This document shows, piece by piece, positions 4,223-57,736 of a stretch of DNA of 64,000 nt (positions are counted from its first letter, which is position 1; every line of letters starts with the position of its first letter). A program made the position numbers and the translations under genes. Source of the DNA: Atopobium fossor DSM 15642 (GTDB lineage: Bacteria > Actinomycetota > Coriobacteriia > Coriobacteriales > Atopobiaceae); NCBI RefSeq assembly GCF_000483125.1, contig NZ_KI519553.1, positions 593,124 through 657,123 of the forward strand, in the 5' to 3' direction. The notes under the pieces are model-generated. The model did no database searches, was not told the origin of the DNA, and saw nothing but the letters and a program-made list of their open reading frames with translations.

Positions 4223-5329
4223 TTGTCAGACATCACATTACATAAGCCCGAAGGCTGGACCGCTGAACTTCATGTTGAGAAAACCAACATGCTTACGGAA
4301 GAAACTACGCTGGTAGAACCCATTATTACCGGAATTAATCCTAAGGAACTGTGGCTTAATTATACGTGGTCATTTGAAGGTCGTTGGGATGAGGGTAATT
4401 GGGATTCCGTTTACAATCATACCGGTGAATATACGCAGGATATGTCGTGGACGTTTGAACCACCACATGAAGGGCGCTATCAAATTTTTGTAGACATCAA
4501 TGACTCTCAAAGTGGAACCATGACGGTTTCTCGTTGGATTACAGTGTCTGCACCAGATGGTTTTAAGCGTCCTGATCTTCCTGCACCAGATGCAGAGACG
4601 GTCATTGCTGTAGATGATGTCTCTATGATTTTTAATATTGCTTCCGAGCAGTTTAATTCCCTTAAAGAGTATTTTTTAGCACTTACTAAAGGTGAATTGA
4701 GCTTTAAAGAGTTTCGTGCTTTGGATCACATTACCTTTGAAGTTAAACGTGGTGAAGCATTTGGCCTAGTAGGCACCAATGGTTCTGGTAAATCAACCAT
4801 GCTCAAGATTATTGCGGGTGTGCTTGAGGCTTCTAAGGGAACATGTCGTGTATCGGGTACCATTGCACCGCTTATTGAGCTAGGTGCTGGCTTTGATATG
4901 GAACTTACTGCTAAAGAAAATATCTATCTTAACGGTGCTCTTCTCGGCTATAAAAAAGAATTTATCGATACTCATTTTGATGAGATTGTTGAGTTTGCGG
5001 AACTTCAGAACTTCATGGATATGCCCCTCAAGAATTATTCTAGTGGCATGGTGGCTCGTATTGCCTTTGCAATTGCAACCATCACTGAACCAGACATTCT
5101 TATTGTTGATGAGACGCTTTCGGTTGGTGACTTTTTGTTCCAGCAAAAATGCGAGCGACGCATTAAGGAACTTGTTGAGTCTGAGGGTGTAACCGTTTTG
5201 TTGGTGAGCCACAGCATTGATTTAGTGGAGCGCATTTGCGATCGTGTTTGTTGGATCGAGAAGGGCAGGCAGCGAATGCTTGGACCTACCGACGACGTTT
5301 GCGAGCAATACAAGCGATTGGAAGCCTAA
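4223..5329 (+). CDS. ABC exporter ATPase (Wzt-like) with an extra N-terminal beta-rich domain
   Basis: Energises the neighbouring permease. The start is TTG at 4223 with AGGGGAG 6 nt upstream. Residues 125-368 are the nucleotide-binding domain: Walker A TNGSGKST at about 185-192, signature NYSSGMVARIAFAIA at about 272-286, Walker B with catalytic Glu in ILIVDETLS at about 292-300, and the switch His in LLVSHS at about 329-334. Residues 1-112 precede the ABC domain. They are rich in Trp, Tyr and Gly (WSFEGRWDEGNWDS, MSWTFEPPHEGRYQIFVD) with alternating hydrophobic residues, suggesting a beta-sandwich. Known Wzt proteins carry a glycan-binding beta domain at the C terminus, but this protein ends shortly after the ABC fold. 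The N-terminal module may be a relocated recognition domain; that is inference. Confidence 0.88.
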   Translation: MSDITLHKPEGWTAELHVEKTNMLTEETTLVEPIITGINPKELWLNYTWSFEGRWDEGNWDSVYNHTGEYTQDMSWTFEPPHEGRYQIFVDINDSQSGTMTVSRWITVSAPDGFKRPDLPAPDAETVIAVDDVSMIFNIASEQFNSLKEYFLALTKGELSFKEFRALDHITFEVKRGEAFGLVGTNGSGKSTMLKIIAGVLEASKGTCRVSGTIAPLIELGAGFDMELTAKENIYLNGALLGYKKEFIDTHFDEIVEFAELQNFMDMPLKNYSSGMVARIAFAIATITEPDILIVDETLSVGDFLFQQKCERRIKELVESEGVTVLLVSHSIDLVERICDRVCWIEKGRQRMLGPTDDVCEQYKRLEA

Positions 5330-5330
5330 T

Positions 5331-6419
5331 ATGCCCACCACTTCTTTAGAAAGACCGAGCTTAAGTGTTCTGGTTCCCATTTTTAATGTCGAGAAGTACT
5401 TGCGCCAGTGTCTTACATCGCTGATGGCACAGGATTATCAGGATTTTGAAGTCATTTTGCTTAACGATGGCTCTACAGATTCCTCAGCGGATATTGCGGA
5501 AGAATTTGCTCATTCGTATGAGCGAGTTAGTCTTATTAATAAAGAAAATTCTGGTTACGGCGCTACGCTTAACCTGGGTATCGATAAGGCTCGTGGCACT
5601 TATATTGGTTTTCTCGAGTCTGATGACCTGATGTATCCTGGTGCCTTACGGGTACTTATGGATGCAGCACTTACACATGATGCAGATGTTGTTTGTGGCA
5701 CCTACTCTAACTATTGGTCACAAGAAAACAAAGATGAGATTCAGCATCCTTATGCTGCAGATTTAGTGGGTCGTCCTAAAGATTATCGTGGTGATTTGCG
5801 CCCATTTTTAACGCAACATGCTATTTGGGATGGGGTATACCGTCGCCAAATGCTGTTTGATCAAAGCATTCGTTTTTTGGAAACCGCAGGAGCTTCATAT
5901 CAGGATACTTCCTTTGCGTTTAAGACTTATGCCGCCTCGCAAAAAACTGTCTTTTTGGATGTACCTATCATTCATTATCGTCAAGATAATGAGGGTTCTT
6001 CCGTGCATTCTCGCGGCAAAGTATATGCCGTTTGTCAGGAATACGACGAGATTAATCACTGGTTGGCTCATCGTAACAATCAGTCTTTTGAGAAGAATTT
6101 TCAGATGGCTGCTCTGGTTGGGCGGTACAATGCGTATTTGTGGAATGTCGATCGCATTGCCCCTGAATTTCGTAAAGAGTTCATATGCTTCATGAGCAAG
6201 GAATTCTCTCTTATGGATGATGCTGGCAGGATTGACTGGGTTCATTTGGATGATTGGCGTGCTCTTAACTTACGTAAAATTTTAGACGATCCTTTGGGAT
6301 ATCTTGCTATTCGCGAACGTCTTCATGGACAAACAGCTTTGTCTAAAGTTGCTTTTGCCTTAGAACTTGGTGGACCTGCAGCACTTGTTGCAGCAGTAAA
6401 AGAGCGAAAGACGCGATGA
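5331..6419 (+). CDS. Family 2 glycosyltransferase, copy A
   Basis: Inverting GT-A fold sugar transferase, 362 aa, expected to act at the inner face of the membrane on a lipid-linked glycan. The N-terminal 100 residues hold the family-2 signature: SVLVPIFNVEKYL (12-24), NDGSTDSS (45-52), NSGYGATLN (73-81) and the metal-binding acidic motif ESDD (96-99). The middle part has AGASYQDTSF and YRQDNEGSS, both shared with the gene at 7583-8671. No membrane segment is visible. The start is ATG 5331, one base after the ATPase stop; an earlier in-frame ATG at 5244 lies inside the ATPase gene and was rejected. Sugar donor and acceptor are unknown. Confidence 0.9.
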   Translation: MPTTSLERPSLSVLVPIFNVEKYLRQCLTSLMAQDYQDFEVILLNDGSTDSSADIAEEFAHSYERVSLINKENSGYGATLNLGIDKARGTYIGFLESDDLMYPGALRVLMDAALTHDADVVCGTYSNYWSQENKDEIQHPYAADLVGRPKDYRGDLRPFLTQHAIWDGVYRRQMLFDQSIRFLETAGASYQDTSFAFKTYAASQKTVFLDVPIIHYRQDNEGSSVHSRGKVYAVCQEYDEINHWLAHRNNQSFEKNFQMAALVGRYNAYLWNVDRIAPEFRKEFICFMSKEFSLMDDAGRIDWVHLDDWRALNLRKILDDPLGYLAIRERLHGQTALSKVAFALELGGPAALVAAVKERKTR

Positions 6420-7528
6420 TGTCCGCAGCTCAATTAGACTCCTCTTTAACATGCCATTGTGAGCAGCCGCTTGTTTCCGTTATTGTTCCAGCTTATAACT
6501 CACAAGATTTTTTAGAGGCGTGCCTTGAGTCTTTGAGAAGCCAAACATTGCACAATATCGAAATCATATGTGTAAATGATGGCTCTACGGATAATACAGC
6601 AAATCTGTTGGAGCAGGCTGCAGCTCAAGACAGTCGCATTGTGGTAGTTAGCCAAAAAAATGCTGGTCTTGGATGTGCTCGCAATGCAGGAGTAGCAGCT
6701 GCTCACGGTAAAATTATCATGTTGTGTGACGCGGACGATATGCTCAAGCCTCAGGCTTGTGAACATGTATATCAACAGTTTGAACAAAGTGATTGCACTG
6801 CTGTAGTTTTTGGGTTTGAGATATTTCCAGAGACTGCATTGCATCCTTCATTGGCTTCTCAGCTTCATCCTCGTGATGTGGTTATTACTAAAAGTAATCG
6901 GGGGATAGAGCAGCTTTTATTTGAGGAAAAAGCTCGTCCTTTTGCTTGGCGTATTGCTTTGCGTGCTAAGTTTATGCAAGAACAACATATATGTTTTCAT
7001 CCAGAGCTTACCTTAGGTGAGGATCAGTATTTTTGCTTTGAAGTGTATCCGCGTTCCAGCAAGACTGTGCTTATGAGTGAGCAGCTTTACTTATATCGCA
7101 TGAATAATCAGTCCATGACGCATACCATCGGTTCGGGTGTGGATGCGCGTTTGGTAAAACTGTCTAAGCATCTTGCCTGTGAGCAAGCTATTATTCAGGA
7201 TTGGACTAATGCTTGCTTCATGGGCATATGCGACGAGAAAATCCTTGAGTGGTGTCTCGATCTATTGTTATTGGATGTATCTAAGCTTCCTGCTCAAAAT
7301 CAAGTGAGTTTTTGGGAGCAATGGCGTACAGAGGTACTCAGTAGGTTTTCTCTACAAGAAATAATGAGTTCTCATAAGTTTTCGAGTGCTGCAAAAGCCT
7401 GTGTAACGGATATTTTGTCTGATACTCATCTGGTATCAAAACGCCATCTTGCCATGTTTTACCTGCATAAACGCGGTATGGTAAGCAGTATGAAGCGTGT
7501 GGTATGGGGCCTTACGCATAAAGCTTAG
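6416..7528 (+). CDS. Family 2 glycosyltransferase, copy B
   Basis: 370 aa GT-A fold transferase starting with ATG 6416 inside the stop of the previous gene (ATGA overlap), so the two are translationally coupled. Motifs: SVIVPAYNSQDFL, NDGSTDNT, GLGCARNAG and the DADD metal site. It resembles the gene at 8679-9737 more than its immediate neighbours. Shared features are KPQACE after the DADD motif, a VFG.E.FP segment, PRD, PF.WR and GEDQ at about residues 200-205, where the family base is expected. Two ATG codons are adjacent at the start. The specific sugar is not predictable from sequence. Confidence 0.9.
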   Translation: MMSAAQLDSSLTCHCEQPLVSVIVPAYNSQDFLEACLESLRSQTLHNIEIICVNDGSTDNTANLLEQAAAQDSRIVVVSQKNAGLGCARNAGVAAAHGKIIMLCDADDMLKPQACEHVYQQFEQSDCTAVVFGFEIFPETALHPSLASQLHPRDVVITKSNRGIEQLLFEEKARPFAWRIALRAKFMQEQHICFHPELTLGEDQYFCFEVYPRSSKTVLMSEQLYLYRMNNQSMTHTIGSGVDARLVKLSKHLACEQAIIQDWTNACFMGICDEKILEWCLDLLLLDVSKLPAQNQVSFWEQWRTEVLSRFSLQEIMSSHKFSSAAKACVTDILSDTHLVSKRHLAMFYLHKRGMVSSMKRVVWGLTHKA

Positions 7529-7556
7529 TTAACCTATGCATGGCTGCTGTTACAAT
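7529..7556 (+). promoter_or_regulatory. Possible internal promoter before glycosyltransferase A'
   Basis: TTAACC at 7529-7534, a 16 bp spacer and TACAAT at 7551-7556, preceded by TG with one base between (extended -10). It lies in the 54 nt gap between glycosyltransferases B and A', the only sizeable gap in the cassette. Confidence 0.45.
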
Positions 7557-7582
7557 GTGAACAGTCAATCAAAGGACTTGCA

Positions 7583-8671
7583 ATGACTTATGTTGATCAA
7601 ACCACACCGCTTATTTCGGTGCTGGTACCTATCTATAATGTAGAGCGCTATCTTGAGGAGTGTCTAGATTCCCTACGTGCACAGACCTTTGATTCTTTTG
7701 AAGTACTCTGTATCAATGACGGTTCCACAGATGGGTCAGCTGCGATTGTTCAGCGTTATATAGATATTGATACTCGATTTAAGCTTATCAATAAACCTAA
7801 TTCGGGGTACGGGGCTTCCATGAATCAGGGCTTGGATGCTGCGCGTGGTGCTTATATTGCCATTCTTGAATCTGATGATTTGTTTATGCCCCAGGCACTT
7901 GAAGTGTTGTATCAGACTTTGCGGGCTCATAACGCGCAGGTTGCAAAGGCAAACTTTACGCTGTACTGGTCTGAACCTCAAAAGCGCACGCAATCTTTTG
8001 ATGTGGTGGGTACACTTGCAAATAGGACCTTATGCCCCTCGGTGGAAGGGCATGAATTCTTTTATCAAAAACCTTCTATTTGGAGCGCACTGTATAGTCG
8101 CACATTTTTAGCAGAGAACAATATCCGCTTTTTGGAGACGCCCGGTGCGTCATATCAAGATGCCTCATTTAGTTTTAAGGCTTTTGCTGCAGCAGAATGT
8201 GTGAGTTTTATTGCGGACGAAATTTTGCTGTATCGCCAGGATAACGAGGCCTCGTCCGTGAATTCTGCTGGTAAAGTATTTTGTGTATGCGATGAGTATG
8301 CGGAAATGCAAAGGTGGCTTGCCAAACATCCTGAGCTTGAGTCACGTCTCAAAAAAGTATTGGCTCATATGAAGCTCAATACCTACTTATGGAATTACAA
8401 TCGCTTATCTCCCAATCTGCGCGAAAAATTTTTTCCAACTATGCGTGCGGAATTACAAGCAGATTTTGATGAACATAATTTTGACGAGAATAACTTGGGG
8501 TTGGTTCGCACAGCAGAGCTCAATGCATTGTTGTTTAACCCTCAGCGTTTTTCTTTTGCTTGGCGCAACGGTGAGCCTCAGCCTGGTAAATGGAACTTGC
8601 TTAAGCACGTGTATGCCCTTGGTGGCTTGCAGCTTTTAATTTTCTTAGCAGGTAAGAAGCTCAAGGGGTAG
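7583..8671 (+). CDS. Family 2 glycosyltransferase, copy A'
   Basis: 362 aa GT-A fold transferase, the same length as copy A (5331-6419) and similar along its whole length. Shared features are SVLVPI.NVE.YL, NDGSTD, NSGYGA, ARG.YI..LESDDL, FLET.GASYQD.SF, YRQDNE.SSV and a WN..R region. ATG 7583 has AAAGGA 7 nt upstream. Compared with copies B and B', it has ESDD rather than DADD at the metal site and a Gly-Tyr-Gly after the NSG motif. It probably makes the same type of linkage as copy A, or transfers a related sugar; this is inference from paralogy only. Confidence 0.9.
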   Translation: MTYVDQTTPLISVLVPIYNVERYLEECLDSLRAQTFDSFEVLCINDGSTDGSAAIVQRYIDIDTRFKLINKPNSGYGASMNQGLDAARGAYIAILESDDLFMPQALEVLYQTLRAHNAQVAKANFTLYWSEPQKRTQSFDVVGTLANRTLCPSVEGHEFFYQKPSIWSALYSRTFLAENNIRFLETPGASYQDASFSFKAFAAAECVSFIADEILLYRQDNEASSVNSAGKVFCVCDEYAEMQRWLAKHPELESRLKKVLAHMKLNTYLWNYNRLSPNLREKFFPTMRAELQADFDEHNFDENNLGLVRTAELNALLFNPQRFSFAWRNGEPQPGKWNLLKHVYALGGLQLLIFLAGKKLKG

Positions 8672-8678
8672 TTGCTAT

Positions 8679-9737
8679 ATGGCAAAGTTAAGCATTGTAG
8701 TACCTATATATAACGTACAAGAATATCTTGTTTCGTGTTTGGATTCCTTACGTGCTCAAACATATACCAATATAGAAGTACTTTGCGTAAACGATGGCTC
8801 GCCTGATGGTTCTCGTGCTATTGCACAAACATATGCAGCACAAGATCATCGTTTTACCGTTATCGATAAGCCCAACGGTGGGCTATCGAGCGCGCGTAAT
8901 ACGGGTATTATGGCTGCTACATCACCCTATATATGCTTCTTGGATGCAGATGATTGTTTTAAGCCACAAGCGTGTGAGCGCATGGTGCATGAATTGGAAT
9001 CCAATCATGCAGATGTATTAGTATTTGGCGGGGAAGCATTTCCGCATTCCGAGACGTATCCGTGGCTAGAAAGCGTGTTATCACCACGTGACATCATCTA
9101 TCATTCCTTTAAGCCAGAACTTCTTTTTACCGAAGCAGTAAAACCTTTTTCTTGGCGTCTTGCTTGTAAAACTGATTTTTTGCGTAAGCATCATATTTTA
9201 TTTAATGAAGCCGTTCGTTACGGAGAGGACCAGGTTTTTGCCTTTAACTTGTTTCCACAATCAAGTAAAACACAGCTGATTTCTGACAAATTGTATGAGT
9301 ATCGCATTGTGCATAAGAACTCTCTTCTCAACAAAATGTTGCAGGATAAGGTTGGCATGCTGCTTGAACATATCAAGATACAGCAGGTAATTTTTGACTT
9401 ATGGAAGCGTTTAGGCATTTTGAAAAACTATGCAAGCTATCAAATGGAATGGCTTGTGGAATTTTATTTGTTTGACGCGCTATCCTTGGATGATCCAGGC
9501 TATGAAACAGTATGGGAAGCAGCACAAAAGCAACTTATGCAAAATTTTGAGCGTCATCACATACAACAAGCACAGCTTATGATTCCTACGAAGAGACTTT
9601 TGCTCGCTTGTTTTGATGGCAAGCATCTTTCTCAAGGCAGGCGTAAACTGCTTGCGTTTTGCTATGTAATAACAAAACGTGGCTTCACAGGTATTGTAAA
9701 AAGAATTCTTCGTGGACGCGCAAAAGTTCATAGCTAG
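8679..9737 (+). CDS. Family 2 glycosyltransferase, copy B'
   Basis: 352 aa GT-A fold transferase, paralogue of copy B (6416-7528). Motifs: SIVVPIYNVQEYL, NDGSPDGS (Pro replaces Thr in the usual DGSTD), GGLSSARNTG, LDADD, KPQACE, PRD, PFSWRLA, YGEDQ. It begins 7 nt after the stop of copy A'. The last 35 residues are basic and hydrophobic, which fits peripheral membrane contact. It is the last gene of the cassette; no clear terminator follows, and the pyr promoter begins about 12 nt downstream. Confidence 0.9.
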   Translation: MAKLSIVVPIYNVQEYLVSCLDSLRAQTYTNIEVLCVNDGSPDGSRAIAQTYAAQDHRFTVIDKPNGGLSSARNTGIMAATSPYICFLDADDCFKPQACERMVHELESNHADVLVFGGEAFPHSETYPWLESVLSPRDIIYHSFKPELLFTEAVKPFSWRLACKTDFLRKHHILFNEAVRYGEDQVFAFNLFPQSSKTQLISDKLYEYRIVHKNSLLNKMLQDKVGMLLEHIKIQQVIFDLWKRLGILKNYASYQMEWLVEFYLFDALSLDDPGYETVWEAAQKQLMQNFERHHIQQAQLMIPTKRLLLACFDGKHLSQGRRKLLAFCYVITKRGFTGIVKRILRGRAKVHS

Positions 9738-54482: not shown

Positions 54483-54511
54483 TTGACAAGAGCATCGTAT
54501 CTCAATACGAT
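54483..54511 (+). promoter_or_regulatory. rny promoter with operator-like palindrome
   Basis: TTGACA at 54483-54488, a 17 bp spacer and TACGAT at 54506-54511, one of the best promoters in the window. The inverted repeat ATCGTAT-CTCA-ATACGAT (54494-54511), with perfect 7 bp arms, covers the spacer and the whole -10. The transcript would have a leader of about 160 nt (54518-54676) with small stems (ACGTC/GACGT near 54535) but no RNA family that I recognise. Confidence 0.65.
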
Positions 54512-54676: not shown

Positions 54677-56236
54677 ATGGAACCGGTTTCGATTTTGATT
54701 GGCATTGTGTGCCTTATTGCAGGTGCTGCAATTGCCTATTATTTTGCTAATAACGCACATACAAAGCGCGTACAAGAAGCTCAGGCAAAAATCCAAGAGG
54801 CAGAAGATAAGGCTAAGCAGATTCATGCAGATGCTCAGCGTCAGGCAGAAACATCTCGTAAGGAAGCTGTTCTTGAAGCTAAAGAAGAAATCCTGCAAAT
54901 GAAGCAGGCATCTGAGAATGAAGAACGTCAGCGCAAGAGCGAGCTTCGTAGCATGGAAAATCGTATCATGCAACGCGAGGAGTCGCTTGATCGTCGCAAT
55001 GATGTACTTGATAAGCGTGAGCATCAACTTTCCAGCTTGCAAGGCCAGCTTGACCGCAGGCGTAATGATTTAGACGGTATTATTTCTCAACAGACCACAG
55101 AGTTGGAGCGTATTTCTGCACTTACCACCGACGACGCACATAAAGAACTTCTCGATAGGGTTCGTAAGGATACCATCAAGGAAGAAGCTCAGATTTTACG
55201 TGAGTCCGAGACTCGTGTTCGTGCAGAGGCCGAGAAAACCGCGCGTAAGATTGTTTCTATTGCAATCCAGCGCTGTGCTTCTGATCAGGCCGGTGAGATT
55301 ACCGTAACTTCCGTACATATTCCTTCCGATGACTTAAAGGGTCGTATCATTGGTCGTGAAGGTCGTAATATTCGTACCTTTGAACAGATTTCTGGTGTTT
55401 CACTGGTTATTGACGACACACCTGAAACCGTTGTGCTTTCCAGTTTTGATCCTGTCCGACGCGAAACTGCTCGTGTTGCCCTAGAAAATCTCATTGCAGA
55501 TGGGCGAATTCATCCTGCTCGAATTGAAGAGATGTATAAGAAGGCAGAAGAGCTTGTAAATCAGCGAGTTCAGGAGGCGGGTGAGCAAGCTGCATTTGAT
55601 TGTGGCATGCATGATTTGCACCCAGAGGTTATTAAAATTTTGGGTAAACTGCGTTATCGTACGTCATTTGGACAGAATGTTCTTCAGCATTCTATACAGG
55701 TGGCAGAGCTTTGTGCCATTATGGCGTCTGAGCTTGGTATTGACCCTACTCCCGTAAAGCGTGCTGGCTTGTTGCACGACATTGGAAAGGCTATCGATCA
55801 CGAAGTTGAAGGTCCTCACGCTGTTATTGGTGCTGATTTTGCTCGTCGTTATGGAGAGCGTGCAGACATCGTACATGCTATCGAGGCCCACCATGCAGAC
55901 ATTGAGCCTAATACCATCATGGATCTTCTCGTTCAAGCTGCAGATGCTATTTCTGCAGCTCGCCCAGGCGCTCGTCGTGAATCTGCAGAAAATTACATTA
56001 AGCGCCTTGAGAAGCTTGAGACTATCTCTAATGCCCATGATGGTGTTGAGCGTACCTATGCAATGCAAGCTGGTCGTGAGTTGCATGTAATGGTTGAGCC
56101 TCAAAAGATTTCTGACTCCGAAGCAACTGTTTTGGCACATGATATTGCTCAGCAAATTGAGGATGAGATGGAATATCCCGGTCAAGTTCGCGTTGTTGTT
56201 ATTCGTGAATCTCGAGCAGTAGACATTGCTAAATAG
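54677..56236 (+). CDS. rny: Ribonuclease Y
   Basis: Membrane-anchored endoribonuclease that starts mRNA decay; 519 aa. One membrane segment at about 4-25, a long charged coiled coil (25-200), a KH domain with LKGRIIGREGRNIRTFEQISG (about 220-240) and an HD domain with LLHDIGKAIDHEVEGPHAVIG (about 366-386) and AHHADIEP. ATG 54677 follows ATAGGAGAG. The following ATPase gene starts 3 nt after its stop, suggesting an operon with it and perhaps spoVS. Confidence 0.96.
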   Translation: MEPVSILIGIVCLIAGAAIAYYFANNAHTKRVQEAQAKIQEAEDKAKQIHADAQRQAETSRKEAVLEAKEEILQMKQASENEERQRKSELRSMENRIMQREESLDRRNDVLDKREHQLSSLQGQLDRRRNDLDGIISQQTTELERISALTTDDAHKELLDRVRKDTIKEEAQILRESETRVRAEAEKTARKIVSIAIQRCASDQAGEITVTSVHIPSDDLKGRIIGREGRNIRTFEQISGVSLVIDDTPETVVLSSFDPVRRETARVALENLIADGRIHPARIEEMYKKAEELVNQRVQEAGEQAAFDCGMHDLHPEVIKILGKLRYRTSFGQNVLQHSIQVAELCAIMASELGIDPTPVKRAGLLHDIGKAIDHEVEGPHAVIGADFARRYGERADIVHAIEAHHADIEPNTIMDLLVQAADAISAARPGARRESAENYIKRLEKLETISNAHDGVERTYAMQAGRELHVMVEPQKISDSEATVLAHDIAQQIEDEMEYPGQVRVVVIRESRAVDIAK

Positions 56237-56239
56237 GCT

Positions 56240-57331
56240 ATGAGCAACGAAGCTCAAAAACATAACAACTTGTTTGATTTTGTGGAAACAGTATCAGGCG
56301 ATAAAACCCTTCGCGTTGAGGAAAACCTAGGCGAGGGGTTTGTCCGTCTACGTGTAGCTGAGGCAGAGCGGCGTCAGGCAAAGCATGATATTCGCTGCTC
56401 TGAGGATGTTATTGTCGAGATGCTCCGTAACTCACGCGATGCTGGTGCACAACATATTTATGTGGCAACTGCGCGTGATAGGGATATGCGCTCTATTGTT
56501 ATTCTTGATGATGGTCAAGGTATTCCAGAGTATATGCAAGAAAAGGTTTTTGATGCGCGCGTAACCTCCAAGCTAGAATCCATGCACATGGATCGTTGGG
56601 GAGTTCATGGTCGCGGTATGGCTTTGTATTCTATTAAAGAAAATTCTGACGAAGCACGTGTCATGTCCTCTGGTCTTGGAAAGGGTACATCCATCCGGAT
56701 TGTAACTGACACCACCAGACTATCCGAACGTGCAGATCAATCAACCTGGCCCCAAATCGGAACTGATGATGAGGGCGCTCAGAGTGTGGTACGTGGTCCT
56801 CATAATATTGTTCGTACATGCTGTGAGTTTGCATTAGAAGAACGACCTCAGGTATCGGTATATCTTGGATCTCCTGCAGAGATTGTTGCAACTATTCGCT
56901 CCCGTGTGCGCTCTGAGATTGATGAAACAGAACTATTATTTATTGATTCTTTAGAGTTTCTACCGGTACTTCATAGGTTATATGCAGCAGCAGATGCTAT
57001 TGATTTGCAAGAAGTTTCAAGAAGTCTTGGGTTAGATATATCAGAACGTACCGCCCATCGTATCCTTGCTCATCAGATTAAGCCTCAGCGTAGTGTTATT
57101 GCTCAACTAACACACTCTACAGATGATTTAGGCGCTCATGAAGTTGACCTTCTTAAAGATCGTCGTGGTCTCAAATTATCACAAGATGACCTAGATGATT
57201 TCTCTCGTTTGCTTGAACGTGATTTTGAACTTATTGCAAAGCGCTATTATGTTTCACTCGCGGGTCAACCAAAAATTAGGGTATCTAAAAATAGAATTTC
57301 GGTAAGTTTTGAGATAGATAAGGACGATTAA
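56240..57331 (+). CDS. Uncharacterised GHKL (Hsp90/MutL-like) ATPase
   Basis: 363 aa. The N-terminal 160 residues show all Bergerat-fold motifs: N box EMLRNSRDAGA (Glu60, Asn64, Asp67), G1 DDGQGIP (90-96), G2 GVHGRGMALYSI (121-132) and GLGKGTSI (145-152). That predicts ATP binding and, with Glu60, hydrolysis as in Hsp90, MutL, type II topoisomerases and MORC. It is not a sensor kinase: no His-box, no membrane segment, no sensor domain. The middle and C-terminal 200 residues are unfamiliar; LQEVSRSLGLDISERTAHRILA (about 254-275) may be a helix-turn-helix, and the end forms predicted beta strands. ATG 56240 is 3 nt after rny, and spoVS follows 108 nt later. Function unknown; RNA or chromosome work with its neighbours is a guess. 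Confidence 0.85.
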   Translation: MSNEAQKHNNLFDFVETVSGDKTLRVEENLGEGFVRLRVAEAERRQAKHDIRCSEDVIVEMLRNSRDAGAQHIYVATARDRDMRSIVILDDGQGIPEYMQEKVFDARVTSKLESMHMDRWGVHGRGMALYSIKENSDEARVMSSGLGKGTSIRIVTDTTRLSERADQSTWPQIGTDDEGAQSVVRGPHNIVRTCCEFALEERPQVSVYLGSPAEIVATIRSRVRSEIDETELLFIDSLEFLPVLHRLYAAADAIDLQEVSRSLGLDISERTAHRILAHQIKPQRSVIAQLTHSTDDLGAHEVDLLKDRRGLKLSQDDLDDFSRLLERDFELIAKRYYVSLAGQPKIRVSKNRISVSFEIDKDD

Positions 57332-57439: not shown

Positions 57440-57736
57440 ATGGAGTTTCTAAAAGTATCAAGCAAGTCTTCACCTGCATCGGTTGCTGGTGCTATCGCCG
57501 GCATGGTTAAGGATGGAACTCCAGTAAACATGCAGTGTGTAGGTGCTGGCGCTGTTAACCAAGCAATTAAGGCCTTAGCTATTGCACGTGGATTCTTGAT
57601 TCCAACTGGCATTGATATTTCTTGTGCTCCTACATTTTCTGATATTTCCATTGGTGGAGAAAATCGTACGGCTATCCGCATTGCTGTGTATGTACATCGT
57701 TTAGCTGCACCTACGGCAGAAACTTCTGTCGAGTAA
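57440..57736 (+). CDS. spoVS: Stage V sporulation protein S family (Alba-like)
   Basis: 98 aa with the conserved beginning MEFLKVSSKSSPASVAGAIAG, GAGAVNQAIKALAIARGFL and AVYVHRL. In Bacillus it affects septation and coat assembly; the fold resembles Alba nucleic-acid-binding proteins. No other sporulation gene is visible and the inferred lineage does not sporulate, so a general nucleic-acid role is more likely. ATG 57440 has GTAGGAG upstream. A TAAAAT -10-like element lies about 60 nt upstream. Confidence 0.94.
   Translation: MEFLKVSSKSSPASVAGAIAGMVKDGTPVNMQCVGAGAVNQAIKALAIARGFLIPTGIDISCAPTFSDISIGGENRTAIRIAVYVHRLAAPTAETSVE

What the first reader, a model, noticed from the sequence alone, without database searches (positions are those of the whole stretch)
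56240..57331. Uncharacterised GHKL ATPase wedged between RNase Y and SpoVS
Every Bergerat-fold motif is intact, yet there is no kinase or known chaperone, MutL or topoisomerase partner domain, and the C-terminal 200 residues are unfamiliar. It starts 3 nt after rny, a membrane RNase, and is followed by spoVS, an Alba-like nucleic-acid-binding protein, in a lineage not expected to sporulate. A three-part RNA- or chromosome-handling unit (RNase, ATP-driven clamp, nucleic-acid-binding protein) is a testable idea and the best candidate here for an undescribed system.
Basis: partly seen in the sequence, partly recalled or inferred. Interest (0 to 1): 0.62.

Follow-up and report, generated by a model that had tools for sequence, protein, structure and literature searches.

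The report
Uncharacterised ATPase partnered with RNase Y
A gene of unknown function encodes an ATP-using protein that, across a whole branch of bacteria, is almost always found directly behind the gene for RNase Y, an enzyme that starts messenger-RNA breakdown, so it is probably an ATP-driven helper or regulator of that enzyme that nobody has yet studied.

Summary
The ORF (56240-57331, 363 aa) is real and starts 3 nt after rny. It is under strong purifying selection and has an intact GHL-type ATP site (residues ~51-157) that most resembles MutL. Residues 158-363 match no Pfam family or solved fold.

295 of 298 Coriobacteriia genomes carry the gene. It recurs in many other early-branching Actinomycetota lineages. 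In all 126 loci holding both genes, rny lies upstream on the same strand, 104 of them within 30 nt. Outside the class, 91 of 92 carriers have rny; 86 genomes have neither gene.

SpoVS is a looser companion: it is missing genome-wide in some GHKL+ lineages and present in some GHKL- ones. In deeper lineages a PHP/RNase-AM-like gene follows. All 36 carriers tested have RicT (PSP1), the RNase Y specificity factor; none of 74 genomes has Com_YlbF. Mismatch repair, classical kinase, chaperone, topoisomerase and defence membership find no support.

Best reading: a new family of ATP-driven RNase Y accessory factors. The mechanism is inferred. Occurrence outside Actinomycetota could not be searched, and the RicT correlation is phylogenetically confounded.

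The parts
54483..54511 (+). sigma-70-like promoter candidate (TTGACA-17-TACGAT) upstream of rny; no comparable + strand site lies between rny and the ATPase gene or between it and spoVS
   Evidence: consensus match only, number found not above chance
54677..56236 (+). rny, ribonuclease Y, 519 aa
   Evidence: TIGR03319 E 4e-210, above curated cut-off
56240..57331 (+). the uncharacterised GHL-type ATPase gene, 363 aa
56390..56710 (+). Bergerat-fold ATPase domain, residues ~51-157
   Evidence: Pfam HATPase_c_3/HATPase_c; Foldseek MutL, histidine kinases, Topo VI-B, MORC2
56417..56443 (+). N box E60-MLRN64-SRD67-A68, with the GHL-type (MutL/GyrB-like) catalytic-base glutamate
   Evidence: alignment A2
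56507..56527 (+). G1 box D90-DGQGI-P96
56564..56572 (+). TSK motif T109-S110-K111, also present in MutL (HATSK)
56600..56626 (+). G2 box / ATP lid G121-VHGRGMA-L129
56711..57328 (+). C-terminal region of no known family (residues 158-363): conserved E-R-x-D-Q-S segment, mixed alpha/beta stretch, helical bundle, final helix plus beta hairpin
   Evidence: no Pfam hit in 46 members; no PDB fold match; invariant Q167, N189, G210, R270, R274
56996..57070 (+). HTH-like helix-turn-helix stretch (residues 253-277) with invariant R270 and R274
   Evidence: model helices 253-262 and 269-276, local pLDDT about 95-97; no homology to any solved HTH, so assignment by eye
57440..57736 (+). spoVS, Alba-superfamily protein, 98 aa; frequent but not obligate companion
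   Evidence: PF04232 E 7e-35

Best explanation
The gene encodes a member of an undescribed family of GHL-type ATPases whose job is tied to RNase Y. Shown: an ATP site of the MutL/gyrase/Hsp90 type with the catalytic glutamate; near-universal presence in Coriobacteriia and recurrence in other early-branching Actinomycetota; almost invariable position directly behind rny; occurrence only in genomes that have rny. Inferred from what GHL ATPases do: ATP binding closes, and hydrolysis reopens, a dimer of the N-terminal domain, and that movement is passed to the unique C-terminal domain, which contacts RNase Y, its specificity factor RicT (PSP1) or RNA. The protein thus controls loading, assembly or substrate choice of the membrane RNase Y machinery. 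A specific testable version: because these bacteria have RicT but no Com_YlbF proteins (RicA/RicF), which in Bacillus subtilis hand RicT to RNase Y, the ATPase may do that loading job here. SpoVS (nucleic-acid binding) and, in deeper lineages, a PHP/RNase-AM-like nuclease are optional companions.
For: Presence in 295/298 Coriobacteriia genomes, 269/270 of good quality. Outside the class 92 of 270 genomes carry it; 91 of these have rny, the exception G520 being 79% complete with the gene at a contig end; 86 genomes have neither gene. 126/126 loci holding both genes have rny upstream on the same strand, 104 at <=30 nt. In rny+ GHKL- genomes rny is followed directly by miaB, miaA, spoVS or another unrelated gene, and only histidine-kinase-level hits remain elsewhere. 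All 36 carriers tested have PSP1/RicT against 10/38 rny+ non-carriers; Com_YlbF in 0/74; B. subtilis RicA/RicF are needed to form RicT-RNase Y (PMC10470536). The downstream PHP protein of deeper relatives scores best against RNase RNM and nucleoside-bisphosphatase models. GHL catalytic residues are conserved.
Against: No biochemical, interaction or expression data. The carriers are related: on the rny tree the label changes only 7 times (3 forced), so the correlations with spoVS and PSP1 rest on few independent events and are not significant after correction. Conserved adjacency can also reflect simple co-transcription in a stable gene cluster (recA-recX-rny-...-miaB-miaA-hflX). One complete genome of the same order (G163) lacks the gene cleanly but keeps rny and spoVS, and many rny+ lineages lack it, so it is not indispensable for RNase Y. 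The most divergent relatives (f36) have an eroded G2 box, so ATP use may not be universal.
Confidence: 0.55

Rival explanations
1. It acts on DNA: a MutL/MORC-like ATP-gated clamp in recombination, repair or chromosome organisation, sitting near recA and recX and paired with the Alba-like SpoVS.
For: Nearest ATPase relatives are MutL (profile E 6e-10; hhalign probability 97%) and, structurally, Topo VI-B and MORC2. The cluster starts with recA-recX.
Against: Dependence is on rny: carriers have it, and the recA-recX-rny-miaB order is the same in genomes without the ATPase. MutL and MutS are absent from tested carriers outside family f36, which has both, so it is not a mismatch-repair part. No restriction-modification or helicase neighbours as described for MORC/paraMORC (PMC2292703).
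Confidence: 0.13
2. An ATP- or energy-sensing transcription regulator with a C-terminal HTH that controls its own rny-spoVS-miaB cluster or other genes.
For: HTH-like stretch 253-277 with invariant R270 and R274, confidently modelled helices.
Against: No homology of that stretch to any Pfam or solved HTH; genome-scale dependence on rny is not expected of a general regulator; no conserved operator was looked for.
Confidence: 0.12
3. An Hsp90-like chaperone that folds or assembles RNase Y (a coiled-coil membrane dimer) rather than regulating it.
For: GHL ATPase type shared with Hsp90; TRAP1 among weaker fold hits; strict pairing with one client gene.
Against: No Hsp90 middle or C-terminal domain detected. 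G163 keeps rny without it, as do many other rny+ lineages.
Confidence: 0.1
4. A degenerate histidine kinase or anti-sigma-like GHKL switch that ended up behind rny.
For: HATPase_c and many histidine-kinase models give weak matches to residues 54-156.
Against: No HisKA/DHp or sensor domain; the N box carries the GHL glutamate and the protein has MutL's TSK motif; the profile search ranks MutL above kinases.
Confidence: 0.04

Closest known systems
MutL N-terminal ATPase domain (DNA mismatch repair)
   Same: GHL-type N box (E-x3-N-x2-D-A), D-D-G-x-G, TSK, G-x-G ATP lid; best profile hit, E 6e-10; hhalign 97% over residues ~50-242
   Different: No match to the later transducer part with the NVHPxK lysine motif, no MutL C-terminal domain; far below the MutL cut-off (36 vs 180 bits); carriers outside f36 lack MutS; genomic partner is rny
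MORC / paraMORC families (PMC2292703)
   Same: Stand-alone GHKL ATPase with an additional C-terminal part; linked by operon to a nuclease
   Different: Neighbours are an RNase and RNA-modifying enzymes, not restriction-modification genes; vertical core gene, not sporadic; MORC matches stop at residues ~56-125; no credible PADLOC match
Y-complex RicA/RicF/RicT (YmcA/YlbF/YaaT) of Bacillus subtilis
   Same: Accessory proteins that determine RNase Y function; RicT (PSP1) is present in all 36 carriers tested
   Different: No sequence relation; RicA/RicF (Com_YlbF) absent from all 74 genomes tested; not ATPases
rny-ymdB-spoVS cluster of Bacillus subtilis
   Same: Gene neighbourhood of rny with spoVS (the B. 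subtilis order is recalled, not tested here)
   Different: Here a GHL ATPase sits between rny and spoVS, and a PHP-domain gene, not ymdB, follows spoVS in the deeper lineages examined

Membership tests
GHKL superfamily, GHL subgroup (gyrase/Hsp90/MutL type) | Bergerat-fold ATP site with N, G1 and G2 boxes | tested here: met
   Pfam HATPase_c_3 and HATPase_c above cut-off; motif conservation; Foldseek
GHKL superfamily, GHL subgroup (gyrase/Hsp90/MutL type) | Catalytic-base glutamate in the N box | tested here: met
   E60 in 45 of 46 diverse members
GHKL superfamily, GHL subgroup (gyrase/Hsp90/MutL type) | S5-fold transducer domain with a basic residue contacting ATP | tested here: inconclusive
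   hhalign against MutL runs into the start of that region but misses the NVHPxK motif; the C-terminal model has no fold match and only moderate confidence
GHKL superfamily, GHL subgroup (gyrase/Hsp90/MutL type) | ATP hydrolysis and N-terminal dimerisation | not testable with these tools
   needs purified protein
MutL | Whole-protein match to the MutL equivalog and C-terminal dimerisation/endonuclease domain | tested here: not met
   35.7 bits vs cut-off 180, residues 55-136 only; no MutL C-terminal family
MutL | Works with MutS | tested here: not met
   MutS absent in 21 of 23 carriers; present only in the two f36 genomes, which also have true MutL
Histidine kinase | HisKA/DHp phospho-acceptor domain | tested here: not met
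   no such domain in any of 46 members
Hsp90 (HtpG), gyrase B, topoisomerase VI-B | Family-specific middle, transducer or C-terminal domains | tested here: not met
   no such Pfam family in any of 46 members at E<=1; near-full-length fold alignments to Topo VI-B have rmsd about 21
MORC / paraMORC | Restriction-modification or helicase operon context | tested here: not met
   context is rny-spoVS-(PHP)-miaB
MORC / paraMORC | GhXhhpXXRhl motif in the S5 domain (MORC proper) | not tested
   not searched for
RNase Y accessory factor (functional class) | Genomic dependence on, and linkage to, rny | tested here: met
RNase Y accessory factor (functional class) | Physical interaction with, or effect on, RNase Y | not testable with these tools
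   needs pull-down or deletion strain

The most novel reading that the evidence does not exclude
A GHL-type ATPase acting as an ATP-driven loading or gating factor of RNase Y: the MutL/gyrase/Hsp90-type ATPase engine driving mRNA decay, possibly replacing RicA/RicF in handing the specificity factor RicT to RNase Y in early-branching Actinomycetota.
Probability: 0.25. Interest if true: 0.85.

Novelty: new variant of a known kind. Interest (0 to 1): 0.62.

Why it matters
RNase Y starts mRNA decay in many bacteria, but how it is controlled outside Bacillus and its relatives is largely unknown. This family is a core companion of rny across a whole class and several sister lineages, including common human gut and oral bacteria (Collinsella, Atopobium, Olsenella), yet public annotation calls it only 'ATP-binding protein'. 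If it energises or licenses RNase Y, mRNA decay in these bacteria would be coupled to ATP by an engine otherwise known from DNA repair, topoisomerases and chaperones. The natural loss in G163 and the rny+ lineages without it give ready comparisons.

Tried and rejected
Mismatch repair: MutL and MutS are absent from tested carriers outside f36. Histidine kinase, Hsp90, gyrase or topoisomerase: no partner domains in 46 members. Defence: PADLOC gives only a 0.028 hit, to a methyltransferase. Mobile element: no phage hit, no viral contig relative; the one 'plasmid' hit is a 0.9-Mb Collinsella replicon that also carries rny. C-terminal domain by fold: a second AlphaFold job on residues 158-363 (57 sequences) gave no PDB match, best E 1.4. 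HTH by profile: chance hits only. Replacement of RicT: rejected, tested carriers all have PSP1. Co-divergence of RNase Y and the ATPase in f36: not special, miaA and miaB diverge as much. Phylogenetically corrected test of the spoVS and PSP1 correlations: too few independent contrasts.

Full report
WHAT IS THERE. The window lies in a 1.65-Mb genome of a bacterium close to Atopobium minutum (84% identity of this protein). The cluster reads rimO-pgsA-cinA-recA-recX-rny-ATPase-spoVS-miaB-miaA-hflX, all on the + strand (names other than rny, spoVS, recX and the ATPase are assigned by eye). The ATPase ORF, 56240-57331, starts 3 nt after the rny stop codon. The only + strand promoter-like site in the intergenic regions from recX to spoVS lies upstream of rny, and the + strand terminator-like sites lie inside the ATPase ORF and at the end of spoVS (weak evidence, but consistent with co-transcription).

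THE PROTEIN. Residues 51-157 form a Bergerat-fold ATPase (HATPase_c_3 E 1e-9, HATPase_c E 2e-7). The N box has the GHL-type catalytic glutamate (E60, 45 of 46 members), and T109-S110-K111 matches MutL's TSK motif. Profile searches rank MutL first among solved structures (E 6e-10, residues 49-135), and hhalign against MutL N-terminal domains gives probability 97% over residues ~50-242. Foldseek with the whole model (mean pLDDT 75) hits MutL, histidine kinases, Topo VI-B and MORC2; the good matches are to the ATPase domain. Residues 158-363 match no Pfam family in any of 46 members and no solved fold (best E 1.4), yet carry residues invariant across the phylum (Q167, N189, G210, R270, R274). A confidently modelled helix-turn-helix-like stretch at 253-277 holds the two invariant arginines, but it has no homology to known HTHs, so its role is open.

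DISTRIBUTION. 295 of 298 Coriobacteriia genomes have it, 269 of 270 good ones. In a 296-genome draw over the phylum 118 have it. Outside the class: 92 carriers, 91 with rny; 92 genomes with rny but no ATPase; 86 with neither. The single carrier without rny (G520) is 79% complete and the gene sits at a contig end. The most divergent group, f36 (probably Rubrobacteria, from memory of genome size, not tested), keeps the position behind rny but is shorter and has an eroded G2 box.

LINKAGE. In all 126 loci that hold both genes rny is upstream and co-directional; the gap is at most 30 nt in 104, 31-350 nt in 21, and in one an extra 180-aa ORF intervenes. SpoVS follows within 1 kb in 116 of 126. In rny+ genomes without the ATPase, rny is followed by miaB, miaA, spoVS or another gene, and a sensitive search finds only histidine-kinase-level hits elsewhere. 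One complete genome of family f2 (G163) shows a clean absence: recA-rny-spoVS-miaB, with recX gone too.

COMPANIONS. In lineages outside Coriobacteriales a PHP-domain gene sits between spoVS and miaB; it scores against RNase RNM (5e-50) and nucleoside-bisphosphatase models, below their cut-offs. PSP1/RicT occurs in 36/36 tested carriers and 10/38 rny+ non-carriers (Fisher p 3e-12), and Com_YlbF in none of 74. In B. subtilis RicA and RicF, which are Com_YlbF proteins, are needed to place RicT on RNase Y (PMC10470536). On an rny tree, however, the ATPase label changes 7 times (3 forced), and the PSP1 and spoVS correlations rest on 2-3 supported independent contrasts, so these two correlations are leads, not proof. 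The adjacency to rny is less exposed to this weakness, because it holds in every lineage examined, long-separated ones included.

WHAT IT IS NOT. Not MutL or a mismatch-repair part (35.7 bits vs cut-off 180; no MutS/MutL in tested carriers outside f36). Not a histidine kinase, Hsp90, gyrase or Topo VI (no partner domains). Not a known defence protein. Not mobile: no phage or viral-contig relatives, and the one plasmid-database hit is a 0.9-Mb Collinsella replicon that also carries rny.

HOW IT MOST LIKELY WORKS. Shown: ATP site, conservation, occurrence with rny, gene order. Inferred: ATP-driven closing and opening of a dimer moves the unique C-terminal domain, which acts on RNase Y, RicT or RNA. 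Probability that it is an RNase Y accessory factor of any kind: about 0.55; that it is specifically an ATP-driven loader or gate: about 0.25.

NOVELTY AND LIMITS. The searches of the open-access library found no paper linking a GHKL protein to RNase Y; subscription papers were not searched. Phyla other than Actinomycetota could not be searched sensitively. The ATPase engine is a known kind; its pairing with RNase Y and its C-terminal domain are not, hence 'new variant of a known kind'.

Noticed in passing
L168 (G163:C1:1014000-1026000), 4775-9682: Complete 1.45-Mb genome of the same order (family f2) has recA-rny-spoVS-miaB with both recX and the ATPase gene cleanly missing: a natural deletion useful as a comparison.
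   Followed up: yes
L087:7519-8337, L088:8383-9198, L089:4617-5441, L100:2956-3774, L101:4777-5622, L113:7537-8379, L126:4674-5492: A PHP-domain protein related to RNase RNM/AM and nucleoside bisphosphatases sits between spoVS and miaB in deeper-branching relatives, making the cluster rich in RNA enzymes.
   Followed up: partly
L096:4633-5997 and L098:7089-8837; similar genes near rny in L129 and L130: In one lineage (f45) spoVS was not found in the genome and its place is taken by a ~306-aa membrane or secreted protein without Pfam family plus a DUF948 protein.
   Followed up: no
L104:6056-6985, L105:5789-6985, L106:6054-6998: The most divergent relatives (f36) have lost much of the G2 box yet keep the gene behind rny, suggesting a role that may not need full ATP cycling there.
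   Followed up: partly
L116:7144-7686: The only locus with an extra ORF (180 aa, acetyltransferase-like by eye) inserted between rny and the ATPase gene.
   Followed up: no
NZ_OY725717.1 (Collinsella aerofaciens): A 0.9-Mb record listed as a plasmid carries rny and this core gene; probably a chromosomal piece mislabelled as plasmid.
   Followed up: no
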